DNA of 33,460 nt from a bacterium (GTDB lineage: Bacteria > Patescibacteriota > Minisyncoccia > UBA6257 > GWB1-50-10). The notes beneath the pieces were generated by a model that made no database searches, was not told where the DNA came from, and saw only the letters and a program-made list of their open reading frames with translations. The DNA lies in assembly GCA_002686365.1 (NCBI GenBank), contig NZBZ01000021.1, positions 1-33,460 on the forward strand, given 5' to 3'. The translations under genes and the position numbers were made by a program. The first letter of the stretch is position 1; every line of letters begins with the position of its first letter. This document shows positions 17,772-33,460 of this stretch, piece by piece.

Positions 17772-18809
17772 TTATTGTGACCAGTTTACCATTAAGATGT
17801 TGAAGTCGAATATGTTTACTGTTCCATTTCTGTCTAGGTCAGCAGAGGTTGCGCCTCCTCCACTGCCCCAGTTTACCATAAGCGTGTTGAAGTCAAAGAT
17901 GTTTACTTGGTTATCGCCTGTGGCATCTCCTGCTGTAGATGGTGTTGGTCTTGGGCCGACTCCTCCGCCCCCGCCTCCACCTCCCCCACCCCCTCCTGGG
18001 CCAGCAACGATAACAACGACTTCGCTTGTGCTAGGAATTGGTTCTCCAAATAGGGCATATGGAGTTTCAGCAGAGTTTATTTCGAATGTTACGGTGTTTG
18101 TGTTTGTGTTGATTGTAAATGGTGAGATTTCAACCCAGGAGGAACCGTTGTACATATATGGTTTTATTGTTCCTTCTTCGATGCCTGTGTCGTTATGGGT
18201 CATGGCTACAGAAATTGTAATGTCAGTGCCTGTGATGTTTATTTCGTATCCTGCTAATTTGATTGTTCCGGCAGGAGGGCTTTGGTTGTCTGTAAGTTTT
18301 GAGACTTCTGTAATGGTTGCGCTTGTTGTGGATGTTGCGGATATTGTAATGTCGATGTTTTCTCCAAGTTCGATGATGGCGGATTGATCTTCAGAAACTG
18401 CGATGCTTGAGCTTGTGATTCCTTCATCTTCGTCTGATTCAGAGAGAGTTCCAAATGTTCCGTGGATTGTAAGGTTTAGTTCTGTCCAGCCTCCGTTTTC
18501 GAAGACTTCACCTTCTTCAGCCTCAATCCCTCCTACGGAGAATTCGATTGTTTCGTCAGCGTTTGTTCCGTCAGGGTCAGTTGCAAAGAATATATTTGGA
18601 TTATATCCGTATGTGCCGTCTGATGTTGTTCCGGAGCCTATTTCTTCTCCGTCTATATTTGCTTTAACTGTGAATCCGTCAGGAGCATCACCATTTGTGA
18701 AGGTGATTGTGCCGTAGAACTGGTGCGGGATGCCGGGTGCGGCAGAGGTTATGCTCGGGATGGCAAAGATTAGTCCCACGATGAGTGGTATGATATATGA
18801 CTTCTTCAT
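17772..18809 (-). CDS. Secreted protein with C-terminal type I dockerin-like domain
   Basis: Signal peptide; Gly-rich linker; GDATGDNQVNIFDFNTLMVNWGS...ADLDRNGTVNIFDFNILMVNWSQ, two Ca-binding dockerin repeats. Confidence 0.85.
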   Translation of the reverse strand: MKKSYIIPLIVGLIFAIPSITSAAPGIPHQFYGTITFTNGDAPDGFTVKANIDGEEIGSGTTSDGTYGYNPNIFFATDPDGTNADETIEFSVGGIEAEEGEVFENGGWTELNLTIHGTFGTLSESDEDEGITSSSIAVSEDQSAIIELGENIDITISATSTTSATITEVSKLTDNQSPPAGTIKLAGYEINITGTDITISVAMTHNDTGIEEGTIKPYMYNGSSWVEISPFTINTNTNTVTFEINSAETPYALFGEPIPSTSEVVVIVAGPGGGGGGGGGGGGVGPRPTPSTAGDATGDNQVNIFDFNTLMVNWGSGGGATSADLDRNGTVNIFDFNILMVNWSQ

Positions 18810-18916: not shown

Positions 18917-21900
18917 CTATTCGTCGTCACTGCCGTTACCCGGACCGTAGGCATAGTCAATTGATGGTGAGAATGATTTTAGGAAGATCCAGTATCCTGC
19001 TCCTGGATCAATGTCGTCTTCGAAGTCTACTGTATCGAATGTTTTTGATTCATTATCGTATGATCGTATTGAGCTCCAGTATGCGCTCGTTTCATCCCAT
19101 GTGTCTGTAAGGAGTGTTGCGAGGGCAAAGTTTGCTGGTTCTGATGTTGTGCCTTCGATTTGGTAGTACCCGAGCATGTTCCATCCTTCGTAGAGAGTTC
19201 TTTCTGGAGGTGTTATTTCCCCGCCCTGGAATGTATTTCCATACCCTTCAATTGTTCCTTCGTCCTCAGATGAGTAGTTGATCCAGTATGCATACCCAGC
19301 AGTTAGTTCGTCAAGATTGCTTGTTTCAGGGCTTCCTGGGCGGTAGACAGACCACGTATTTGTTCCTTTGTCATAGGTGTAGACGGAACTAATTGTTGAG
19401 GATGAGTTGAGCTCTCCTAAGACATCCCCTACGTCTGAGCTTTGGGGTACGATTGGAATGGAGATAAGATTCCAGCCCTGAGTTAGATCTATTGAGTATG
19501 TTACTGCTGTGGTGAAGTCCCAATCATACTCGTCAATTTCATTTTCAGAGTCGTCTACGATGTTATATAGATATACTGTATATGTTGAGTCGCCATCTAG
19601 TGTGTCGCCTGGTGTGATGGTTGCGGTTCTTGTCTCACTATCATATGAGACAGTTACATCCTGCTCGTCCCATTCTGATTCGAGGTCAACGTTTTCTTCG
19701 GATATAGTTACGTCTTCATCGAATGTTACTGTGATGCCGGGGTTATTTGGATCAAGGCCTGTTGTGTTTGGAGTTGGGGTAACTCCAGAGATTCCCGGAG
19801 GCGTAGCATCTGCTGGATTTACAGTACGCTCAACATTTGGATTTCCATTTATGTCTTCTAATACTCCGGCTGTAATAGTTACATCTGGTGTGGCATCCGC
19901 GTTTATTGAGGTTCCGAGGGTGAGTGTTACTTCTCCATCATCTGTTTCTTCTGCGTTTGTTACAGTGTTGTCTTCTACAGTAAAGTCAGAGGCGTCTATT
20001 GTTTCTTCGTCAAGGTCTTCGCTGAAAATTGCTGTTATTGTAGTCGCAGATGTTGTTTCTGCTTCCATAAGTACTGGTCCTGCGTTATCGTCTGCTGTGA
20101 TGAAGTCATCATCTATTTCGTTTCCTGCAAGGTCTTCAACGTTATATATGTATAAGTCTAGTTCTTCGTCTGTATTAGCCCCTTCGTTGTCTTCAATAAT
20201 AATTATTGTGAGTACTCCGGCTGTTTCTGTTGTGCTTGTTGCGTCGTATCCGTCTACATCAAAGTTTTCAATATCTATACTTTCATCGGCCAGGTCTTCG
20301 TTAAATGTTATTGTGACCTGGTCTATTTGTCCGTTTTCATCTGTATCTGCTGTTACTGCTTCTAGCATTTCAGGGGCAACAGTATCTACTGTAAATGTTC
20401 CGGATGAGTCAGGGCTCATAATATTCCCAAGTTCGTCTTGAGCTGTAGATATTGTGATTGTTCCAGTTGCTGCGTCGCAGTCATCATATACTTCGAGCTC
20501 ATAGGAGTATGTATTGGAATCTTCAAAGTCCATTTCTTCTGCCTCTATATTGTCGCAGACTCCAGTTGAGCTTGAGTATGTGATTGAGATTTCCGGCACT
20601 GTATTTTCATCAATGTCTTCTGTAAATGTCGCAGTAAGTGTGTAGAAGTCTTCTATGTAGATCGCTGTGCCGAGGTCTAGAGAGTCTATTGTAGGACCTA
20701 CAGTATCAATAAGGACGTTTCCGTCAGTATTTTCGGTTTCATTATTTGCAAGGTCGTTTCCTGTGATTGTGATTGTGTTCGTGCCCTGCGCGTCGTTTTC
20801 AGTTACCGCATATGTGTAGGTGTAGTTTAGGTCGCTGGAGGTTGTAAATGTTGCGTCGTTTGTTCCCACTTGTACAATTGGATTTGCGATAAGGAGTTCG
20901 TCGGATGTGAAGGTGATTGAGATTTCTCCTGCTTTAGTTTCAGCTGGAGTTGATGTTACGTTCGAGAAGGTTGGCGGGGTGTTGTCTATGGTTAGCTCAT
21001 TTGAGACATCTATTGTTGACGAGGCATTTGCAGGGCGTTCTACGTATACTAGTACCTGCCCTTCTGTGTTTGCTCCGCCTGATGCAACTACAAAGGTGCC
21101 CTCTAGGGCTGTTTCTGACCCATCTTTCGGGCTTAGCGTGGTGTCATCTTCTGTCCCAAAGTCAGAGGCATCTCCTATTCCAGTGTTTTCTGTGTTTGAG
21201 TCAGTTTCTACTGTGATGGTTACTGTATCTCCATCTTTTACATTTGTCTGGCTGTTTGGCGGTGTGAGTGTGATGCTTGAGATTTGCGGTGTGGTGTTAT
21301 CCACAGTCACAGAATCAGAAAGAATTATTGCAGTATTCCCTGCCTCATCAAGGAGCTCTAATTCGAGACGGACTGTAACTGCGTTTGTTTCAAGCGTGCC
21401 TATATTTATTGTGCCGGAGATGTTTGTTCCATCTTGGGTTACAAGTTCTGTTGTGTCAGTTCCTTCTCCGATTTCTGTACTGCTTGCGTCGTATACTCTA
21501 AATGTTGATGCTGTGAGTGTTGGCGTGGATCCGGTTCCATCTATTGTTCCTCCGATTGTAATGTCATCCAGATTTTTTACTGCAGTCTGCTCGTTTGGTT
21601 CATCTAATGTAGGGCTTGCAGTTGGGTCTTCATTGTCAAAGAGTGTTGAGACAGAAGTGTCTTGTGTAGAGTTTGTCGCAATATCGGTTGCGGTTATAAC
21701 AAGTGTTTTTGTTCCATTTTCTATGTTCGTACTTGTGGCAATAGTGAATGTATTTGAATAAGTGCTTGATCCTGTGAGATTTAGAGAATATTCCGCGTCT
21801 CCCTCAAGCGGAGTGAGATCAATTGTTACGGTTTCTACTCCGGATGGAGTATCAGTTACTTCTGCGGAGATCTCGATAGTGTCTCCTTCTTTTACAGCAT

Positions 21901-22720
21901 TTTGTCCTTCAGGCAGTGTGATTGAGGTTGTGGATATTGTTGGCGCTATCTTGTCAATTCTTACCTGGTTTTCTGCTGTTTTTACATCTTCAGTGTTTCC
22001 AACGTTATCTATGGAGAAGTATTTAATGGTGTAGGTTCCGGTGTTTGTAAGAGAGATACTTGTTCCTTCTGATGATGATTCTGTCGGGTCATTTCCATCT
22101 GAGGTGTAAAAAGTATTGGCAATTCCAGAACCGTCTACGTGTTCTACAAAATTATCTATTGGAGTGAGAGTGATAGTTACGTCTTCGTTGGTCCACGTAC
22201 TTGTTGCATTGTCAGTTGTAAGCGGGGCCGTGACATCAACAACTGATTCTAATGATGTTGTTATGTTATAGCTCTGCTCGTCCCATGTAGTCGTGTCCCA
22301 GTGATAGTCAGTGTCTTCTTCGAGCGCATCAGGTGATGTTGCTGAAAATGTAACACTTGCGCTTTCTCCGGGAGCAAGATGGTCGTGTTGAACTCCTTTT
22401 ATGCATTGGATTTCATTGCTTTCGGGCGGAGATGCTTTTCCCCAAGATAGTGGGCATGTAATTGTTTCTACGCCGCTGAACGTGAATCCGTCTGGGATTG
22501 CAATATCAATTTCCGCAATGCTGTCTGTGGAGCTTGCATTATTTGTGAGCGTGACTGTGTATTCATTTTCTGTATTCCCTGCCGTTACCTCAGGAGTGAT
22601 TCCGTCCGCGTCTGTTACGTGGGCTGCTTGGATGACCTTTATTGCAACAAAAATACCGCTGAAGATTAGCGATACTGCGAGAAGACCAATGATGGTCTTC
22701 GATGTATTAAGTGTGAACAC
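18917..22720 (-). CDS. Large acidic surface protein with bacterial Ig-like repeats
   Basis: 1267 aa, N-terminal hydrophobic segment; chitobiase-C-like segment (YTSDGNDPTESS...YTIKYFSIDNVGN), several Ig-like repeats, SbsA-like PPGISGVTPTPNTTGLDPNNPGITVTFDEDV, terminal WNLISIP/GWNMLGYY repeats. Confidence 0.85.
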   Translation of the reverse strand: MFTLNTSKTIIGLLAVSLIFSGIFVAIKVIQAAHVTDADGITPEVTAGNTENEYTVTLTNNASSTDSIAEIDIAIPDGFTFSGVETITCPLSWGKASPPESNEIQCIKGVQHDHLAPGESASVTFSATSPDALEEDTDYHWDTTTWDEQSYNITTSLESVVDVTAPLTTDNATSTWTNEDVTITLTPIDNFVEHVDGSGIANTFYTSDGNDPTESSSEGTSISLTNTGTYTIKYFSIDNVGNTEDVKTAENQVRIDKIAPTISTTSITLPEGQNAVKEGDTIEISAEVTDTPSGVETVTIDLTPLEGDAEYSLNLTGSSTYSNTFTIATSTNIENGTKTLVITATDIATNSTQDTSVSTLFDNEDPTASPTLDEPNEQTAVKNLDDITIGGTIDGTGSTPTLTASTFRVYDASSTEIGEGTDTTELVTQDGTNISGTINIGTLETNAVTVRLELELLDEAGNTAIILSDSVTVDNTTPQISSITLTPPNSQTNVKDGDTVTITVETDSNTENTGIGDASDFGTEDDTTLSPKDGSETALEGTFVVASGGANTEGQVLVYVERPANASSTIDVSNELTIDNTPPTFSNVTSTPAETKAGEISITFTSDELLIANPIVQVGTNDATFTTSSDLNYTYTYAVTENDAQGTNTITITGNDLANNETENTDGNVLIDTVGPTIDSLDLGTAIYIEDFYTLTATFTEDIDENTVPEISITYSSSTGVCDNIEAEEMDFEDSNTYSYELEVYDDCDAATGTITISTAQDELGNIMSPDSSGTFTVDTVAPEMLEAVTADTDENGQIDQVTITFNEDLADESIDIENFDVDGYDATSTTETAGVLTIIIIEDNEGANTDEELDLYIYNVEDLAGNEIDDDFITADDNAGPVLMEAETTSATTITAIFSEDLDEETIDASDFTVEDNTVTNAEETDDGEVTLTLGTSINADATPDVTITAGVLEDINGNPNVERTVNPADATPPGISGVTPTPNTTGLDPNNPGITVTFDEDVTISEENVDLESEWDEQDVTVSYDSETRTATITPGDTLDGDSTYTVYLYNIVDDSENEIDEYDWDFTTAVTYSIDLTQGWNLISIPIVPQSSDVGDVLGELNSSSTISSVYTYDKGTNTWSVYRPGSPETSNLDELTAGYAYWINYSSEDEGTIEGYGNTFQGGEITPPERTLYEGWNMLGYYQIEGTTSEPANFALATLLTDTWDETSAYWSSIRSYDNESKTFDTVDFEDDIDPGAGYWIFLKSFSPSIDYAYGPGNGSDDE

Positions 22721-24919: not shown

Positions 24920-26695
24920 TTATACCACCTCGGCTTGGTAGCAAGCCTCGCAATAGATGATTTCCTTGCGGTCTGGGGCAAATGCTGTTTGGAATTTGTT
25001 TTCACAGTGTTCTTTGCTGTGATGCATGTGGTTTGCAATGTTTTTGTAGATATTTGAATCGTCTTTTTCTCCTGCACACGTGCAGGCACGGTCGTAGAGT
25101 TTCATAGTATTGCGTTTTTTTATGCGTTCGTAATGTCTGCAGGAGACGCAGAGGTGTGGGATGGGCAAATTGAATCGTTTTAGGAATTGTAGTTCTTGTG
25201 GAATGATTTTGAAGGCTCCGGCGCACTCGTGGCTGCAGTTTTGTTTGTGTTCGCACTCGAGTATTTCTTTTAGGATGCTTTCATCTACGTCTTTTATATT
25301 GTCCGGAATGTTTTCGGCTTGGATTGTTGCTGGGTGCTGTGGTTTTTTTGTGTCTTTCCAATTAAATCCTTGGGCAAGCGCTTCTTCTTTTTTCAATGGG
25401 AAGTGTTCCTGATTTATGGTTTCGTTATATCCAAATATAGAGAATTCTGCTGGAAAGAATTCTCCATACTTATAAACTCTCCCCCCTTGTCTTTAAAGGG
25501 CATTTTGTCCATGTGTCGTTTTATTTTTTGAACAAGTTCTTTATATTCTTCCTTCGAGTACTGTTTGTTTAGGATGCAGTACTGGTCATTTCTTAATGAG
25601 ACACAGCCAAAGCAGTCTGATGAGGATTTGCAGTATTCAGCGTATTCAAGGTTTTGGCAGTTTATGTATGTTTGTATGCAGAATTTGCAGTTATATGTTT
25701 GTCCTCCTAATACTATGCCCTCATAGCAGAGCGTTAAATTGTCTCCATATATGGTTACGTCGTAAGAATCTTTTTGGGGTCCGAAGGCAAGGTATTGGCA
25801 GTAGCGGAGATCTTCTCCTCCGACATTCCAGTAAGAATCTTTTACGTTTTTTGAATTGTATATGTATTCTCCGCTCACATTTACTGATTTTGTTCCGTCA
25901 GACCTATATTTGTTTGGAAATTGGAGATGAAGTTTTTCTGTTTTTTCTTTGATCTCCTGTATGTTTTTATGCGAGCCGTTTAGGAGTTCCTGTATCTTTT
26001 CTTCATACTCTTTTTTTTTCATATGGCTTGTTAAATATGTAGTAGTGTTTTTTTCGTAGATTTGTGCATCCAAAGCAGTTTGTGCATCCCCATACGTTTT
26101 TGGAGAAATAAATGTCTGTTGACTGAACAGCATATTCAGAAAAGAATACCCTGCTTGATTCTGCTGAGTTTATTGTTTCGTATGCAAGCTCGCAGTCTTC
26201 TATGTGGGAGTTATCAAATGATGTTTTGTATCTAACTATTCCATTCCCATACGCGCAATCTTCTGAGTATGATGTGTTGAATAATAGGTAGCAGTTTTTT
26301 GTCTCTGATGCATTGTTGCAGTAGTCACTGTTCTCTAAGAGAAATGCGGATTTTGCCGGCTTTGGAGTTTTGTTTGAGAGTTCTAGGAACTGTTCAAAGA
26401 ATGGGCGATTCCAATCATAGTCTTGTGCATAATCTTTTGCATCCCAGTCATCGGAGAGCCATTCTTTTAGTGTATATACAGGAAACGGCACGCTTTCAGG
26501 AAATGTTGAGAAGATGGTTTTTTTGGAGAGGTCGCTTTTTCGTTTGTGGAGTGGGCGGTCGTCTCTAAACGCCATCCTGCGTTGTGCGCGGCATAGGTAG
26601 CAAAAGGTTGGATGCGGCACACCTACCTTCTTGTAGAAGTTTTGGTCGTCAGAGTCGATTTCGAAATCTTTTTTACAGTTTTGGCAGTTGGGCAT
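24920..26695 (-). pseudogene. Cys-rich paralog A, disrupted by two compensating homopolymer indels
   Basis: ORFs 26003-26695, 25414-26133 and 24920-25396 align consecutively with paralogs B and C. Breaks lie at A9 and G6 runs; first and third ORFs share a frame; total 1776 nt matches intact paralogs. Confidence 0.8.
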
Positions 26696-26700
26696 GGTTT

Positions 26701-28467
26701 TTATGATGTTTCAGCTTGGTAACATTTCTCACAGTATATTATTTCTTTCCTGTCCGGAGAATATGCAGTTTCGAATTCCTTTGGGCAGTGGTCTACGCCG
26801 TGGTGCGAGTGAGTAGATGTATTTTGGTATACTTCGTTTTCGGATTTTTCTCCAGCACATTGACATTTGCGGTGCCAGAGATTTATCGGGTTTTTAAGGC
26901 GGACTCGTTCCATGTGGCGGCACTGCGGGCAGAGTCGCGGGAGTGGTACTCCGAGGCGACGATAGAAAGTAAGCTCTTGTGGGAGAATTTTGAAGGCGGT
27001 GGCGCACGGTTCGGTGCATGTCCCGCCGTGTGCGCATCCTATAATTTGTTCCGTGATGGAATCTTTGGCGTCCTCTATGTCATCTGTAATGGAATCAATG
27101 GGCAGTGTGATGGTGTACTTTTTTGTTTCGGGTTCTTGCCATGCGCATCCGAATGATTTTGCTGCTTCTTTTGTTTTCGGATAGTAATCCTGCGCAAGGG
27201 TTTCGTTGTAGGCGAACGGAGAAAGGTCTGTTGGGAAAAATTCTCCGTACGAATATACCCTTCCTTTTTTGTCCGTGTATGTTTTTTCTTTCATCTGTTT
27301 GATGATTTTTGGAACAAGTTCCTCGTACTCTTCTTTGGAATACTGCTTGTTGAATATACAGTATTCTTTGCTTCGCAAGCCAACGCAACCGAAAATATGA
27401 TTCGAGTCAAAACAGTTGTAGGAATATTGTACGTCGAACCCTCCCCATATGAACGCCGAGTACTTCACGTTTTGCGCCGTTACGCTTACTGCTTCGTAGA
27501 ATAATTCTGCGCCGTTCCATACTATGAAAGCGTCCGCACCGTCTTTTACTCCTTGGTGGAGACGGAATCCGTATCTACAGTTTTCTATATCATTTCGTGC
27601 ATTGAAGCACCAGTATAGATTTCGACTGTTGGTAATGTCGTCGCCCAGCACATTTTCTGATTTTAGGATTGCGGCGAATTTGCGGGGAGTTTTTGTTTTC
27701 AGCTTTTTAAACGTTTGTTGAGCATTTTGTACTCCTGAGAATGTTCCGAGTCGGAGTTTTGAAAGGCGTTTTTTGTATTCTTCTTTTGAAAGTTTTTCGT
27801 TGAAGATGTAGTGGCTTTTGTTCCGCAGGCCAACACATCCAACGCAGTCTGAGCAGTTTATGCAGTCATAGAGTAACCATGAGTCGGTGCAGTTTGTGCA
27901 AGCTTCGGAAAATCGGAGTTTTGATGAGTTTGTGCAGTCAAGGATTTCGTAGCACAACTCGACTTTATGGGACTGATGGACATCGAGGCATTCTCTTGCG
28001 CCCAGTACGGCCCCGAATGAGTACATGCAGTCTTCGGCGGTGTCCGTGCTCGCTACGAAATAGCAGTTTTTTGTATTTAGCGTATAGTTTGCGTATTCGC
28101 TATTTATGAGATTTTTTTGAATAAGGTTCGGATGGGGAGTTTTTTGGAAGAGTTTTTTAAACTGCTCGAAGAAGGATTTTGAGAAGTCATATTCTTTTCC
28201 GTATTCGAGCGGGTCCCATTTATCGCTTTTCCAGTATTCGTTGTTGTAGACGGTAAACGGCGAGTCCTCGCGAAACATGGAAAGCATAGATCCTCCTGTG
28301 GCGTCGCATGTCCTTCGGTGCCATGTTCGTTCGTTTCGAAAGAGGAGGCGTCGGATCATTCGGCACTCTGGGCACCAGGTTGGTTCTGGGACCTCTAGTT
28401 TTTGGTAGAAGGCCTTGTCATCTTCTGTGATTTCGAAGTTTTGTTTACAGTTTTGGCAGTTTGGCAT
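26701..28467 (-). CDS. Cys-rich protein with N- and C-terminal zinc-finger-like domains, paralog B
   Basis: 588 aa; CQNCKQNFEI...FYQKLEVPEPTWCPECRMIRRLLFRNER and CTEPCATAFKI...FYRRLGVPLPRLCPQCRHMERVRLKNP...CQCAGE. Confidence 0.88.
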   Translation of the reverse strand: MPNCQNCKQNFEITEDDKAFYQKLEVPEPTWCPECRMIRRLLFRNERTWHRRTCDATGGSMLSMFREDSPFTVYNNEYWKSDKWDPLEYGKEYDFSKSFFEQFKKLFQKTPHPNLIQKNLINSEYANYTLNTKNCYFVASTDTAEDCMYSFGAVLGARECLDVHQSHKVELCYEILDCTNSSKLRFSEACTNCTDSWLLYDCINCSDCVGCVGLRNKSHYIFNEKLSKEEYKKRLSKLRLGTFSGVQNAQQTFKKLKTKTPRKFAAILKSENVLGDDITNSRNLYWCFNARNDIENCRYGFRLHQGVKDGADAFIVWNGAELFYEAVSVTAQNVKYSAFIWGGFDVQYSYNCFDSNHIFGCVGLRSKEYCIFNKQYSKEEYEELVPKIIKQMKEKTYTDKKGRVYSYGEFFPTDLSPFAYNETLAQDYYPKTKEAAKSFGCAWQEPETKKYTITLPIDSITDDIEDAKDSITEQIIGCAHGGTCTEPCATAFKILPQELTFYRRLGVPLPRLCPQCRHMERVRLKNPINLWHRKCQCAGEKSENEVYQNTSTHSHHGVDHCPKEFETAYSPDRKEIIYCEKCYQAETS

Positions 28468-28473
28468 GGTTTT

Positions 28474-30243
28474 TTATGATACCTCCCCTTGGTAGCATTT
28501 CTCACAATACACTATCTCTTCTCTATCTGGCGAGTATGCAGTCTCAAACTCGTTTGGACAGTGCTCTTTTTCGTGGTCTATGTGAGATGTAGTGTTTTGG
28601 TACACGTTGTTGTCGGATTTCTCGCCCGCGCATTGGCATTTGCGTTTGTGCAGCTTCTGTTTATTTACGCGCGTCATTCGTTCGTCATGCCTGCAGTCAG
28701 GGCACTTGCGTGGGAGCGGGAAGCCGAACCTTCGTAGGAGTTCCAGCTCTGGCTTGATTATTTTGAATGCTTTATTACATTCCTCACACTCAATTATCTC
28801 TTTTAACATGTTATCGCTTACGTATTTTATGCTGTCTGGAATATCTTTTGCTTTTATTGTTGGCTTGTGTTTACTCGGCTCTTGGTCATGCCACTGCCAA
28901 CCCTTTTCAAGGGCCTCTTCTTTTGTCATTGGGAAGTACTGCTTGGCAGTGGATTCGTTGTACTTGAAAGTTGAGATGTCATATGGGAGGAATTCTCCAT
29001 ACTTCCATACTCGTCCTTTTGAGTCAGTGTAGGGGCTTTCATTCATGTCTTTTATAATCTGCTCTCGGAGTTTTTTGTATTCTTCTTCCGAATACTTCTT
29101 GTTTAGGATGCAGAACTCCTTGTTTCGGAGGCTTGTGCACCCAAATATATTTTTTGAGGTGATTATATGCATGGAGTATTCAACGTTTTGCGCGACGTTC
29201 CACGCGGCAAAGCAGAATTTGATATTGCTTGTTCCTTCTCCTGATGTAATTGTGTCATAGATGAGTTCTGCGCCATTTCCCCACTCTGTTAAGTCGTAAG
29301 AGTCTTTTGTTGATGGAATGGTAAGCATTTGGCAGTATCTTGTGTCTTCAGCGTATCTTGATCTATATGTGTTCTTGGAATTTTTTGAAAAGAAAACATA
29401 TTCCCCTGAAGAATTTTTATTTTGTCGTCCATGCATGAACTTGTTTGGGTATTTCAGCCAGTGCTCTCTGGCTTTCTTTTTTAATTCTTCGATTGATTTG
29501 TAGGAGTCGAGCTTGAATTCTTTTATCTTTTCCTCGTACTCCTCTTTTGTGTATGGTTCATTCCATATGTGGTACTTCTGCTTGCGTAGATTTGAGCAGC
29601 CAAAGCAGTTGTCGCACCCTATGAGGTCTTTTGAGAAGTAGACGTCTTGGCACCCTTGGCAGTCTTCAGAAAAGAAGACGCGGGAGCTTTTTCCAGTGTT
29701 TACAATTTGATAGCAGAGCTGGGATTCTCCGCACATTATGACATCCATAGAGTCTTTTACAGTTATCACCATTTCGGAGTATAGGACGTTTTCACAGAAG
29801 TCAGCATTACATATTAGATAGCAGTTTTTGCAGCTGCCAGCGTGAGTTAGGTATTCGCTGTTTACAAGGTTTGGGGTGTCTACAATAAGTGACATGAATG
29901 GCGTTTTGAGTGTCAGTTCTTTTAGCTGGTCAAAGAATTTTTTGTTTGGGTCATAGTCCTGTCCAAATTCCAGCTGGTCCCACTTGTCAGAATACCAGCA
30001 TGGATTGCAGTAGACTGTATAGGGCTTGTCTGGAGAGAAGGAGCTTACCATGTCTTTTTCGCATAGATCGCATTTGCGTTTGTAAAGGGCGCGTTCATTG
30101 CGAAACATGAGGCGGCGTTGGTATCTGCAGTCTGGACAGAAGGTTGGGGGCGGAACCTGTACTTTTTCATAGAACGCAAAGTCATCTGACTCTATTACAA
30201 AGTCAGCTTTGCAGTTTTGACAGGTTTTGGTTTCGGTTTGCAT
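28474..30243 (-). CDS. Cys-rich zinc-finger-like protein, paralog C
   Basis: 589 aa, same architecture as B. Confidence 0.88.
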   Translation of the reverse strand: MQTETKTCQNCKADFVIESDDFAFYEKVQVPPPTFCPDCRYQRRLMFRNERALYKRKCDLCEKDMVSSFSPDKPYTVYCNPCWYSDKWDQLEFGQDYDPNKKFFDQLKELTLKTPFMSLIVDTPNLVNSEYLTHAGSCKNCYLICNADFCENVLYSEMVITVKDSMDVIMCGESQLCYQIVNTGKSSRVFFSEDCQGCQDVYFSKDLIGCDNCFGCSNLRKQKYHIWNEPYTKEEYEEKIKEFKLDSYKSIEELKKKAREHWLKYPNKFMHGRQNKNSSGEYVFFSKNSKNTYRSRYAEDTRYCQMLTIPSTKDSYDLTEWGNGAELIYDTITSGEGTSNIKFCFAAWNVAQNVEYSMHIITSKNIFGCTSLRNKEFCILNKKYSEEEYKKLREQIIKDMNESPYTDSKGRVWKYGEFLPYDISTFKYNESTAKQYFPMTKEEALEKGWQWHDQEPSKHKPTIKAKDIPDSIKYVSDNMLKEIIECEECNKAFKIIKPELELLRRFGFPLPRKCPDCRHDERMTRVNKQKLHKRKCQCAGEKSDNNVYQNTTSHIDHEKEHCPNEFETAYSPDREEIVYCEKCYQGEVS

Positions 30244-30244
30244 G

Positions 30245-30311
30245 TTAGTTTATCTCTTTAAGGTAGCACTCCTCGCCCTTCGATTCGCTCAGGACTTCGG
30301 CTTGCTTTCAT
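30245..30311. repeat. Palindromic insert plus duplicated gene tail in the D/C spacer
   Basis: 30245-30274 matches the 3' end of D (30313-30342) at 25 of 30 positions and encodes EECYLKEIN*; 30276-30311 carries CCCTTCGATTCGCTCAGGACTTCGGCTTGCTTTCAT. Confidence 0.65.
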
Positions 30312-30312
30312 A

Positions 30313-32037
30313 TTAATTAATTTCTTTAAGGTAGCAAGCCTCGCATAGTATGTTCAACTTTTTCTGTTTCTCTGGCGGATAGACGCTCCATGTTTTTTTA
30401 CTGCATTTTGGGCAGGCAAATGGGAATAGCCAGAGATTGTGGTCTTGCGCTGCTCTTTTTAGTATTCGTTTGAATGGATGAATGGTTGGTATTGGAATGT
30501 TCATTTTGCGGTAGAAGGCAAGTTCGTTTTTTGTGATTCGGAATGGTTTCTTTGTTATTTCACAGATTATTGCTTTTTCTAATATGGAGTTGTCTATGTC
30601 TTGTATGTTTTCTGGAATTTCATTTGGCGCTTGGAGCTGCTGCATTTTTTCCGGGATTTCAGATTCGGGCTCTTCATACCATGGAATTTCTTTTTCCATC
30701 GCTTCTTTTTTGGTTATTGGGAAGTAGAGTTGGGAGCTGCTGCCCTGGTGTGGCATGAGTCCGAGTTTTGTTGGAAAGAATTCTCCGTACTCTTCCCTTT
30801 CGAGCATTTTTGTTTTTATGCTGTCTACTTTTTTATAGTATTCGCTTTCCTCATATGGTTTGTTGAAAATATGAAATTGTTTGTTTTTTAGTCCTATACA
30901 TCCAAAGCAGTTGTGACAGTTGTAGCATTCTATGCAGTACTCTAGAAATGTTCCTTCTCTCACCTGAAGACAGAATTTTGTATTGTGCGCTGTTCCTGAT
31001 GTTATTTCGTAAGTGTATTCGCTGATGGTGCCTACTACGTCCATTACATTTTTTGCTCTTGCAAATATTGTAGAAAAGCGCGCGTTTTCAGAGTTTTCTG
31101 AACGAAATGTAAAGTAACAGTTTTTGCAGTTTGTGAGATAGTCTCCAACACAGTTTTCCACATTGATATTTTTTGTCGCCCGATGAGTTGATTCTTGTAT
31201 AAGTTTTTGGAATTTTTGTATGTACTCGTTACGAATAGATCTTTTCCCGAGACCTATATTTTTTATCTTTTTTTCGTATTCTTTTTTTGAGAGCTGTTTA
31301 TTTTCAAAAATGTAAGATTTATTTCTAAGATTGGCAGATAGGAAGCAGTTTTGACAGTTTTTACAGTCGAATAGAAATAATGATTCGAGACAGTTTGAGC
31401 ATTCTGTTATGTGTTGGCACTTACTGCAGTGGTCTGAACCAATTGATTCGTAGCATAGTTCGGAATCTCTTGTATTGTGGCAGTCAATGAGATTGCGGGA
31501 GTATCGTATTTCGTAGCAGTAGGTAAGATCTTCTGACTCAACTGCTCCCCCGCTAAAATAGACGCTTGATGTTTTTAGTCCTCCTAGGCTGTAGTCGGTA
31601 TTTGTTCCTTTTGGGTCCCGTTCCATTGGTAGGTGGGGTATGCTGAAGAAGAGGTTTTTAAATTCTTCGAAAAATGGTTTTGATTCATCGTATTCTCGCG
31701 CGTATTCTATTGCATCCCAGTTGTCTCCATGCCAGTAGTGAAAGTCGTATATTTTGTGTTTTGTTTCAGGCGGGAAGATTGTCAGGATTTTTTTCTTGTC
31801 TTTCATTGCAGACTCTTTTTTGAAAAATCTTGGCATTCTGATGTGGTGGCTAAGGCGGCGTTTTAATCTGCAGAGTGGGCAGTGAGTTGGAGGCGGGACT
31901 CTGACCATTTTATAGAAATCAATATCTCCCTGCTCTATGCGAAATTTTTCTTTACATTCTTTGCAGATTTTTTCTAGGGGCCTTAGGTCTTTTAGGATTT
32001 TATTGAGAGCTTTGTCGAAGTTTGGAGTATTAGTCAT
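30313..32037 (-). CDS. Divergent Cys-rich paralog D
   Basis: 574 aa; CKECKEKFRIEQGDIDFYKMVRVPPPTHCPLCRLKRRL and beta-rung core retained; C-terminal cap diverged. Confidence 0.85.
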   Translation of the reverse strand: MTNTPNFDKALNKILKDLRPLEKICKECKEKFRIEQGDIDFYKMVRVPPPTHCPLCRLKRRLSHHIRMPRFFKKESAMKDKKKILTIFPPETKHKIYDFHYWHGDNWDAIEYAREYDESKPFFEEFKNLFFSIPHLPMERDPKGTNTDYSLGGLKTSSVYFSGGAVESEDLTYCYEIRYSRNLIDCHNTRDSELCYESIGSDHCSKCQHITECSNCLESLFLFDCKNCQNCFLSANLRNKSYIFENKQLSKKEYEKKIKNIGLGKRSIRNEYIQKFQKLIQESTHRATKNINVENCVGDYLTNCKNCYFTFRSENSENARFSTIFARAKNVMDVVGTISEYTYEITSGTAHNTKFCLQVREGTFLEYCIECYNCHNCFGCIGLKNKQFHIFNKPYEESEYYKKVDSIKTKMLEREEYGEFFPTKLGLMPHQGSSSQLYFPITKKEAMEKEIPWYEEPESEIPEKMQQLQAPNEIPENIQDIDNSILEKAIICEITKKPFRITKNELAFYRKMNIPIPTIHPFKRILKRAAQDHNLWLFPFACPKCSKKTWSVYPPEKQKKLNILCEACYLKEIN

Positions 32038-32052
32038 ATTTTAGTTGTGTCT

Positions 32053-32119
32053 CTAGGCTACCTCATTGTTGTAGTACTGCTCGCACTTCGATTCGCTCAG
32101 TACTTCGGCTTGCTTTCAT
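32053..32119. repeat. Palindromic insert plus degenerate gene tail in the E/D spacer
   Basis: GCACTTCGATTCGCTCAGTACTTCGGCTTGCTTTCAT (32083-32119) closely matches the D/C insert; 32053-32082 encodes EQYYNNEVA*, resembling E's EACYQQEVN*. Confidence 0.55.
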
Positions 32120-33460
32120 TTAATTAACCTCTTGTTGGTAGCAAGCCTCGCAATAGATGGTTTCCGGCCTATCTGGGGCGTATGTTGTTTCAAATTCATT
32201 CGGACAGTGTTCTTTGTCGTGGTGAGAATGGTTGGTGGTGTTTTTGTATACGTTGTTTTCTGATGATTCGCCTGCGCAATGGCATTTACGATGGTGAAGT
32301 TTTGGAAGGCCTACAAGGCGTACTCGGGCAAAGTGTCTGCAGTTTGAACAGAGGCGCGGAAGAGGGATTCCTAGTTTTTTGTACAGTTGAAGTTCTTCCT
32401 TTGTTATCTTGAAGGCGGTTGTGCATTTTTCTTTACACTCACCTTTGTGTTCGCATTCGATAACTTCGCCGAGGATGTCTTCTTTTATTTCGTTTATGTT
32501 GTCTGGGAGGTCTTTGGTATGTTTTGTGATGCCGTAGTTTTTCTTTTCTTCTTCTTTCCAGGTGTATCCTTTCTTTTCTGCTTCATTTTTTGTCAAAGGT
32601 TCGTACTCTTGGGCTACGGTTTCGTTATAGGCAAATGGTGAGATTTCGATTGGAAAGAATTCTCCATACTTATATTCTTTTTTGTTATTTCCTTTGTATG
32701 GCATTTTGTTCATGTGCGTGATGATTTTTGGAACAAGTTCTTCATATTCTTCTTTGGAGTACTGCTTATTTAGGATGCAGTATTCTTTGCTCCGAATGGA
32801 AACGCAGCCAAAGCAGTTTTTTGAGCCGTGACATCCATAGGTATATGTAGTGTTTGTGCTTCCCCAAGTAAATACGGCAAAAAGGTTTTTTGTTCCCTGG
32901 TCTCCGGAGTCAGTAACTTCATAGAGCAGTTCTGCGGTTGCTCCTACTCCATATCCATCATATAGGTCTTTTATAGGACCTACGCCGTTTACAATAAATT
33001 TGCTGTCTTCGGTTTCTTTTTTTACGTCAAAGCAGAATTTGGAGTTATTAACATAGAATAAGTTGTCTTCTGTTGAGTCTTGGGAGTTAGACATTCTTGC
33101 AAACTTGTGCGGGAACTGGAGTTTTGTTTTTTCGAATTCTTTTTTTGCCTGCTCGAGGTTTTTGTAGCTTCCAATGCCTAGCTCTTCAAGTTTTTTTGTG
33201 TAGTTTTCTTTTGAATATGGCTTGTTAAAGATGTGGTATTGCTTATTGCGGAGCCCTACACAGCCAAAGCAGTAGGAGCACCCCTTGCAGTTAAATAATA
33301 GCGTGGAATTGTTACAGGCTTCGGAGTTTTGTATGAATTTGCATTCGTATAATTTGTCAGAAGATATTGCCTGATAGGTGAGCTCGGATTCGCTTACTCC
33401 CAGAACGTCCATTGTGTCTTTGTTGTTGATTGTTCTGGCGGAATATAAGATGTTTTCTCC
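32120..33460 (-). CDS. Cys-rich zinc-finger-like paralog E, N-terminus outside the window
   Basis: Open frame continues past 33412 to the window edge (GENILYSARTINNKDTMDVLG); same core and C-terminal cap as B and C. Confidence 0.85.
   Translation of the reverse strand, partial: GENILYSARTINNKDTMDVLGVSESELTYQAISSDKLYECKFIQNSEACNNSTLLFNCKGCSYCFGCVGLRNKQYHIFNKPYSKENYTKKLEELGIGSYKNLEQAKKEFEKTKLQFPHKFARMSNSQDSTEDNLFYVNNSKFCFDVKKETEDSKFIVNGVGPIKDLYDGYGVGATAELLYEVTDSGDQGTKNLFAVFTWGSTNTTYTYGCHGSKNCFGCVSIRSKEYCILNKQYSKEEYEELVPKIITHMNKMPYKGNNKKEYKYGEFFPIEISPFAYNETVAQEYEPLTKNEAEKKGYTWKEEEKKNYGITKHTKDLPDNINEIKEDILGEVIECEHKGECKEKCTTAFKITKEELQLYKKLGIPLPRLCSNCRHFARVRLVGLPKLHHRKCHCAGESSENNVYKNTTNHSHHDKEHCPNEFETTYAPDRPETIYCEACYQQEVN

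What the first reader, a model, noticed from the sequence alone, without database searches (positions are those of the whole stretch)
24920..33460. Five tandem paralogs of a ~590-aa cysteine-rich protein with zinc-finger caps at both ends
Seen: five consecutive minus-strand genes (A-E) share one architecture. The N-terminal cap is CxxCxxxFxIxxxDxxFYxKxxVPxPTxCPxCRxxRRLxFRNER. The C-terminal cap repeats the same pattern (AFKIxxxELxFYRRxxxPLPRLCPxCRHxERxRxxNPxxLxHRKCxCAGE). Two copies of FGCxxLRNKxYxIFNKxYSKEEYEE lie between. I count about 30 Cys in paralog B. Inference: short NC/DC/GC-punctuated rungs suggest a metal-binding right-handed beta-helix capped by zinc fingers. I recall related proteins in CPR genomes with uninformative annotations and know of no established function. 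Five adjacent copies next to surface genes suggest a diversifying family.
Basis: partly seen in the sequence, partly recalled or inferred. Interest (0 to 1): 0.85.

Follow-up and report, generated by a model that had tools for sequence, protein, structure and literature searches.

The report
Zinc-capped beta-solenoid partners of VirD4-like ATPase
Ultrasmall, probably host-dependent bacteria (Patescibacteria) carry up to about 25 copies of an undescribed cysteine-rich protein that almost always travels with one orphan secretion-type ATPase, whose last residues form a conserved tag in every such genome examined, which points to an unrecognised molecular machine.

Summary
B and C are intact. A has two compensating frameshifts, D has a degenerate C-cap, and E is cut by the contig end (its N-terminus is on contig C1). 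No known family covers them. AlphaFold models (pLDDT 90-92) show two beta-solenoids of 12 residues per coil between homologous double treble-clef-like caps. Cysteines fall every third residue in the first solenoid.

The new finding is the partner. In two 390-genome samples the family co-occurs with one orphan VirD4/TrwB-type ATPase, 'n0a' (45 of 58/52 and 29 of 31/30; Fisher p about 1e-39). It lies within 3 kb of n0a in 25 of 29 loci, including the window's own array continued on contig C1. All 42 n0a proteins from family-positive genomes end in [P][LIM][ILV]-COOH, mostly EPLI, on a variable acidic tail. Only 2 of 16 from family-negative genomes do.

Best reading: these soluble proteins dock on the ATPase's tail tip, as cargo or adaptors of a membrane-anchored translocase. 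The partnership is well supported; docking and export are inference. 'Diversifying family beside surface genes' is not supported: subfamilies are ancient, and each own copy tested has its closest relative in another genome.

The parts
24920..26695 (-). Paralogue A, frame broken twice (A9 run 26011-26019, G6 run 25481-25486); remnants of all domains
26701..28467 (-). Paralogue B, intact, 588 aa, 32 Cys
28474..30243 (-). Paralogue C, intact, 589 aa, 32 Cys; AlphaFold2 model pLDDT 90.2, pTM 0.92
29974..30243 (-). N-cap of C: two treble-clef-like CxxC...CxxC units (aa 1-90; the second has the CxxC-x17-CxxC spacing)
29554..29889 (-). First 12-residue-coil beta-solenoid of C (aa about 119-230), Cys every third residue, ends in FGCxNLRxKxYxIFN
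29089..29448 (-). Second, homologous solenoid of C (aa about 266-385), fewer Cys
28477..28806 (-). C-cap of C (aa 480-589), homologous to the N-cap with a Cys/His-containing insert
30313..32037 (-). Paralogue D, 574 aa, divergent, first finger of C-cap degenerate
32120..33460 (-). Paralogue E, N-terminus cut by contig end; continues on contig C1 (L135:1-489), followed there by two more copies, then n0a, m2, n8, m1, secF, secD

Best explanation
The family (called F here) is the dedicated soluble partner set of one orphan VirD4/TrwB-type coupling ATPase (n0a), anchored to the membrane by a partner protein (n8) whose domain is fused to it in other lineages. F proteins are rigid double beta-solenoids of 12 residues per coil with LIM-like double treble-clef caps. 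I propose that an F protein, probably through its C-cap, binds the conserved C-terminal tag (EPLI-like) at the end of the ATPase's flexible acidic tail, so a hexameric ring could hold up to six F proteins. The many old F subfamilies would then be alternative clients: cargo handed to the ring for export (first choice) or adaptors that bring other cargo. Shown by computation: architecture, absence of evident signal peptides and membrane helices, co-occurrence, adjacency, the tail motif and its loss, the n8-n0a fusion. Inferred: hexamer, docking, which cap binds, translocation, destination.
For: Co-occurrence: class sample of 392 genomes, n0a 58, F 52, both 45, p 1e-39; phylum sample of 389, n0a 31, F 30, both 29, p 3e-40. 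Of eight F-positive genomes without n0a at first look, three (G025, G599, G329) hold n0a fragments, mostly at contig edges. Adjacency: F within 3 kb of n0a in 25 of 29 loci, same strand in 26 of 27, against about 8% of the own genome lying that near an F gene; F is downstream in one n0a clade and upstream in the other. Tail: [P][LIM][ILV]-COOH in 42 of 42 F-positive n0a and 2 of 16 F-negative ones; in an aligned set of 13 the EP is invariant while the preceding tail varies. In 15 F-positive genomes searched, an EPLI-stop pattern has few hits besides n0a. n0a evolves faster where F is missing: end branches 0.50 vs 0.15, p 0.003. Even solenoid-only or split relatives in distant families (G250, G368, G264, G400) sit beside VirD4-type ATPases. 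The n8 domain is fused to n0a in other lineages (hhalign 99.8%). No membrane or signal stretch in 140 F proteins.
Against: No direct evidence of binding or export. Independent losses are few: 6 well-supported pairs, of which about 4.7 agree and none oppose (sign test p about 0.06), so the tail correlation is suggestive on the tree although strong in counts. Exceptions: F without a detected n0a in G032, G039, G467, G619, G655; n0a with tail but no F in G191 and G670 (the latter 81% complete). T4SS cargo is often unfolded for passage, which suits zinc-capped solenoids poorly.
Confidence: 0.6

Rival explanations
1. F proteins are adaptors that stay in the cytosol: each subfamily binds its own cargo class through the solenoid surface and brings it to the n0a ring through the tail, as IcmSW/DotN do on the DotL tail of Legionella. 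(This shares the docking step with the best explanation and differs in what is exported.)
For: Caps and junction motifs are more conserved than the solenoids: mean identity 0.63 (N-cap first unit) and 0.55-0.56 (C-cap second unit, GEFFP region) vs 0.37 in the solenoids. F appears soluble. DotL, a VirD4 ATPase, recruits IcmSW-bound effectors by its extreme C-terminus (PMC7280309).
Against: No cargo family was found beside F: apart from the n0a-n8-m2 genes, neighbours are mostly housekeeping genes.
Confidence: 0.3
2. F proteins are structural or surface-assembly subunits (an appendage or coat) exported by the n0a-n8 machine, with caps joining end to end.
For: Homologous caps at the two ends, many co-linear copies with ATGA overlaps (15 of 51 gaps are -4), high cysteine content.
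Against: No signal peptide or anchor; no sign of polymer contacts was testable.
Confidence: 0.15
3. F is an intracellular nucleic-acid protein (zinc fingers on DNA or RNA) and n0a a HerA/FtsK-like DNA pump; the pair acts in DNA processing or defence.
For: n0a matches both TrwB/VirD4 and HerA DUF87 Pfam models; caps carry mild positive charge.
Against: Whole protein is mildly acidic (median pI 6.3); no nuclease partner beside it; the n8 subunit has hydrophobic, membrane-like N-terminal segments; F absent from the phage, plasmid and viral-contig collections.
Confidence: 0.15
4. The association is only inherited gene order: F arrays happen to sit beside n0a and both are vertically kept or lost together.
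For: Most F-positive families form a few large clades on the n0a tree; few independent losses.
Against: Gene order differs between the two n0a clades (F downstream vs upstream), F also lies at many other sites in each genome, and the tail motif tracks F.
Confidence: 0.1

Closest known systems
VirD4/TrwB/TraD type IV coupling proteins, in particular the orphan T4CP homologues of Patescibacteria (PMC12102498)
   Same: n0a matches PF10412, PF02534 and PF12696; that paper counts 5,713 VirD4 homologues in 2,918 Patescibacteria genomes, only 148 near virB4, role open
   Different: The F family and the C-terminal EPLI-type tail did not appear in the passages of that paper read here; n0a is soluble and its membrane part is a separate n8 protein or a fused n8-like domain
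Legionella DotL C-terminal tail with DotN and IcmSW (T4 coupling complex)
   Same: A VirD4-type ATPase with a long C-terminal tail that holds partner proteins and whose extreme C-terminus recruits effector-bound adaptors (PMC7280309)
   Different: No sequence relation of F to DotN or IcmSW was found or specifically tested; F is multi-copy, larger and a beta-solenoid; analogy only
Pfam PF13451 zf_Tbcl, PF23477 zf_Tbcl_2, NCBIfam TIGR04272 (CxxC-x17-CxxC), LIM domain
   Same: Caps have the same cysteine pattern and weak hits; the related ATPase n0b carries a full-score PF23477/TIGR04272 finger in its C-terminal part
   Different: Caps of the window proteins score below the curated cut-offs, and the families say nothing about function
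Tenebrio-type insect antifreeze protein (12-residue coil, Cys-rich beta-solenoid; recalled, not retrieved)
   Same: 12 residues per coil, small or Cys residues every third position
   Different: Not among the listed Foldseek matches; F is intracellular by prediction, with two solenoids and finger caps; handedness unknown
Left-handed beta-helix proteins (GlmU, LpxA/LpxD, gamma carbonic anhydrase)
   Same: Best Foldseek matches in PDB (E 6e-4 at best), so the centre is beta-helix-like
   Different: TM-scores nearly all below 0.25, different coil length (12 rather than the 18 recalled for that fold)
Cysteine-rich cluster proteins of Peribacteria (PMC4736985)
   Same: Clustered Cys-rich proteins in the same phylum
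   Different: Those average 1,655 aa and mostly have predicted signal peptides; F has none

Membership tests
PF13451 zf_Tbcl / PF23477 zf_Tbcl_2 / TIGR04272 | Whole-protein score above the curated cut-off | tested here: not met
   All seven window ORFs scanned fall below cut-off (best 19.5 vs 24 and 18.5 vs 27 bits); 7 and 6 of 26 members match at E<=0.01
PF13451 zf_Tbcl / PF23477 zf_Tbcl_2 / TIGR04272 | Cysteine spacing of the finger (CxxC-x17-CxxC in the second unit) | tested here: met
   Alignment columns C58, C61, C79, C82 of paralogue C
Zinc (metal) binding protein | Bound zinc in the purified protein | not testable with these tools
   Only conserved CxxC pairs; needs ICP-MS
Beta-helix / beta-solenoid fold | Regular coil repeat with stacked strands | tested here: met
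   Strands 12 residues apart with bridges every third residue in a model of pLDDT 92.2; Cys phase 998:55:55 in solenoid 1
   No coordinates returned; Foldseek neighbours are left-handed but very weak
VirD4/TrwB coupling ATPase (the partner n0a) | TrwB/TraG P-loop and TraM-recognition domains | tested here: met
   PF10412 33-51 bits vs cut-off 20.5; PF12696 about 24 vs 22
VirD4/TrwB coupling ATPase (the partner n0a) | N-terminal membrane helices in the same chain | tested here: not met
   Read from the sequence: n0a starts soluble; hydrophobic segments are in the separate n8 protein, whose domain is fused to n0a in other lineages
Type IV secretion substrate (cargo) | Translocation or binding to the coupling ATPase | not testable with these tools
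   Only co-occurrence, adjacency and the tail motif
Secreted surface/adhesion protein | Signal peptide, anchor or transmembrane segment | tested here: not met
   None in 140 full-length members by a simple hydrophobicity scan
Recently diversifying tandem family | Array members closer to each other than to copies in other genomes | tested here: not met
   All eight own-genome copies tested have a closer relative outside the genome

The most novel reading that the evidence does not exclude
Patescibacteria possess an undescribed translocation machine: an orphan VirD4-type ring with a membrane subunit that uses a C-terminal EPLI-type tag to load a repertoire of up to about 25 zinc-capped double-solenoid proteins, which are its exported clients, plausibly toward the host cell or the cell surface. 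The machine and its clients may occupy up to about 5% of a minimal genome and have been lost repeatedly.
Probability: 0.35. Interest if true: 0.92.

Novelty: categorically new. Interest (0 to 1): 0.8.

Why it matters
Patescibacteria are mostly uncultured epibionts with tiny genomes, and how they act on hosts is a main open question. Here a family that takes 2.6% of this genome (13 copies), and perhaps 5% in relatives, is tied to one of the orphan VirD4-type ATPases whose role was recently listed as open. That gives the ATPase a partner, the family a testable function, and a four-residue handle that makes the link easy to test at the bench.

Tried and rejected
Known families: Pfam, NCBIfam, PHROGs and PDB by sequence gave no classification. 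phrog_15341 matches only the Cys-periodic solenoid weakly, has no function, and I took it as compositional. Viral origin: no F relative in viral contigs, phage records or plasmids. Solved fold: Foldseek to PDB and viral models gave only weak left-handed beta-helix or zinc-ribbon matches. Generic housekeeping synteny as explanation: disfavoured because F sits on either side of n0a in different clades. Recent tandem amplification or gene conversion: rejected. A second protein carrying the EPLI tag in the own genome: the other pattern hits are short frames or frames that do not look like genes, including a 14-residue frame ending KAEEPLI. Literature for a name or function of the family: nothing found in the papers searched.

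Full report
What is there. The window is the whole of contig C21 of an 888-kb, 21-contig genome, 91.5% complete. Its right end holds five minus-strand members of one family, called F here. B and C are intact. A is broken by two frameshifts at or near homopolymer runs. D is divergent. E is cut by the contig end. The first 420 bases of contig C1 encode the N-terminus of an F gene, in the same orientation, and stop about six codons from where the window's E begins. Two more F genes follow there. I therefore infer one array of seven; the genome has about 13 copies, 2.6% of its length.

Architecture. Each F protein is N-cap, solenoid 1, solenoid 2, C-cap. Profile comparison shows the two caps are homologous (99.5%, E 7e-23) and the two middle parts are homologous (99.9%, E 5e-35). 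Each cap has two finger units; the second has the CxxC-x17-CxxC spacing. Pfam zf_Tbcl, zf_Tbcl_2 and LIM appear only as weak or below-cut-off hits. In solenoid 1 cysteines and small residues fall on every third residue: 998 of 1108 cysteines in 121 proteins are in one phase, while the other two phases have 55 each. Hydrophobic residues repeat at about 12. Two AlphaFold2 models on own alignments have mean pLDDT 90.2 and 92.2 and pTM 0.92 and 0.90. In the second, strands start every 12 residues or so and bridges recur every three. So this is a pair of solenoids with 12 residues per coil. PDB holds no clear match: only left-handed beta-helices, E down to 6e-4, with TM-scores nearly all below 0.25. 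No hydrophobic signal or membrane stretch was seen in 140 members.

Distribution. More than 520 loci in public genomes encode relatives; the named ones are almost all Patescibacteria. Presence is nearly all or none: 22 of 60 relatives, 52 of 392 in the class sample, about 30 of 389 full-length in the phylum sample, usually several copies and up to about 23-27. Neighbouring copies are always on one strand (73 of 73 pairs), often with ATGA overlaps. Each of eight own copies tested has a closer relative in another genome (42-63%) than in its own (32-48%), so the subfamilies are old. The family was not found in viral contigs, phages or plasmids.

The partner. Clustering neighbours of 77 public loci gave one outstanding recurrent neighbour, VirD4/TrwB-type ATPases, in 17 of them. 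There are paralogues: n0b (about 600-700 aa, with a full-score zf_Tbcl_2 finger in its C-terminal part) and a roughly 790-aa form are near universal, whereas n0a (about 490 aa) is not. n0a and F co-occur: class sample both 45, n0a only 13, F only 7, neither 327, Fisher p 1e-39; phylum sample 29 both, 2 and 1 single, p 3e-40. In the phylum sample n0a was counted as matches of at least 452 bits with an ORF of about 450-510 or 690-790 aa, a cut chosen after seeing the list. Three of eight apparent F-only genomes hold n0a fragments, mostly at contig edges. In 25 of 29 F-positive n0a neighbourhoods an F gene lies within 3 kb, in 26 of 27 on the same strand, downstream in one n0a clade and upstream in the other. 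In the window's own genome the order on C1 is secD, secF, m1 (Sigma70 region 4 plus HARE-HTH), n8, m2, n0a, then 90 bases, then the F array that runs into the window. In distant lineages n0a is about 750 aa because an n8-like domain is fused to its front (hhalign 99.8%), which ties n8 to n0a.

The tail. All 42 n0a proteins checked from F-positive genomes end in P-[LIM]-[ILV], mostly EPLI, after an acidic tail of variable sequence and length. Of 16 from F-negative genomes only two do: G191, whose genus mates have many F genes, and G670, 81% complete. Part of this set was fetched after the pattern was seen and served as a test: 13 of 13 new F-positive ones had it. In an alignment of 13 n0a proteins the terminal EP is invariant although the preceding 40-50 residues are not. 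An EPLI-stop pattern hits n0a and little else in 15 F-positive genomes. On the n0a tree F needs nine changes and the tail seven. Six well-supported independent pairs give 4.7 in agreement and none opposed, sign test about 0.06, so shared ancestry limits the statistics. n0a end branches are longer without F (0.50 vs 0.15, p 0.003), as expected if a constraint is lost.

Simpler relatives. G250 and G368 have one-solenoid proteins of about 235 aa without caps; G264 and G400 have double solenoids with the cap as a separate small frame. All four sit beside, or one gene from, a VirD4-type ATPase without the EPLI tail. This suggests the solenoid is the old ATPase-associated unit, and that caps joined to the solenoid go with the tail. 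The last step is inference from four cases.

Mechanism. Best reading: F proteins dock by a cap on the tail tip of the n0a ring and are its clients, as cargo (my first choice) or as adaptors. The analogy is the Legionella coupling complex, where the extreme C-terminus of the VirD4 ATPase DotL recruits effector-bound IcmSW (PMC7280309). A survey of Patescibacteria T4SS found about two VirD4-type T4CP homologues per genome, rarely near virB4, and left their role open (PMC12102498). Binding, stoichiometry, which cap binds, and export are not shown.

Verdict. I rate novelty 'categorically new' because no known family or system I could find describes F or its link to a tail-tagged ATPase; if docking proves to be ordinary T4CP-adaptor biology, 'new variant of a known kind' would be the better label.

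Noticed in passing
25481-26019: Paralogue A has two compensating frameshifts at homopolymers (A9, G6); could be decay, assembly error or phase variation. Reads would decide.
   Followed up: partly
33460 / contig C1:1 (L135): The window's contig end and the start of contig C1 each break inside an F gene at nearly adjoining codons, so the contigs probably join there.
   Followed up: yes
18917-22720: 1267-aa protein with Big_5 Ig-like domains, probably a surface protein; a weakly dockerin-like neighbour lies at 17772-18809.
   Followed up: no
L091:9994-11940, L070:3920-5920: The near-universal second VirD4-type ATPase (n0b) bears a full-score zf_Tbcl_2 / TIGR04272 finger, the same finger type as the second unit of the F caps.
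   Followed up: partly
L135:7698-8711: A Sigma70 region 4 plus HARE-HTH regulator heads the n8-m2-n0a-F gene run; possible regulator of the system.
   Followed up: no
L143:9252-10610 (G021): F-negative genome whose n0a is 72% identical to the query but ends at a stop just before the tail; looks like recent tail loss after F loss. The sequence beyond the stop no longer reads as a tail.
   Followed up: yes
L113: An F gene in a bin labelled Aenigmatarchaeota, on a 2.6-kb contig; probably misbinned Patescibacteria DNA.
   Followed up: no
L139, L140, L141, L148, L152 (next to n0a): A small protein of about 101-117 aa that looks like CutA (divalent-cation tolerance type, judged by eye) recurs beside n0a and F in several genomes.
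   Followed up: no
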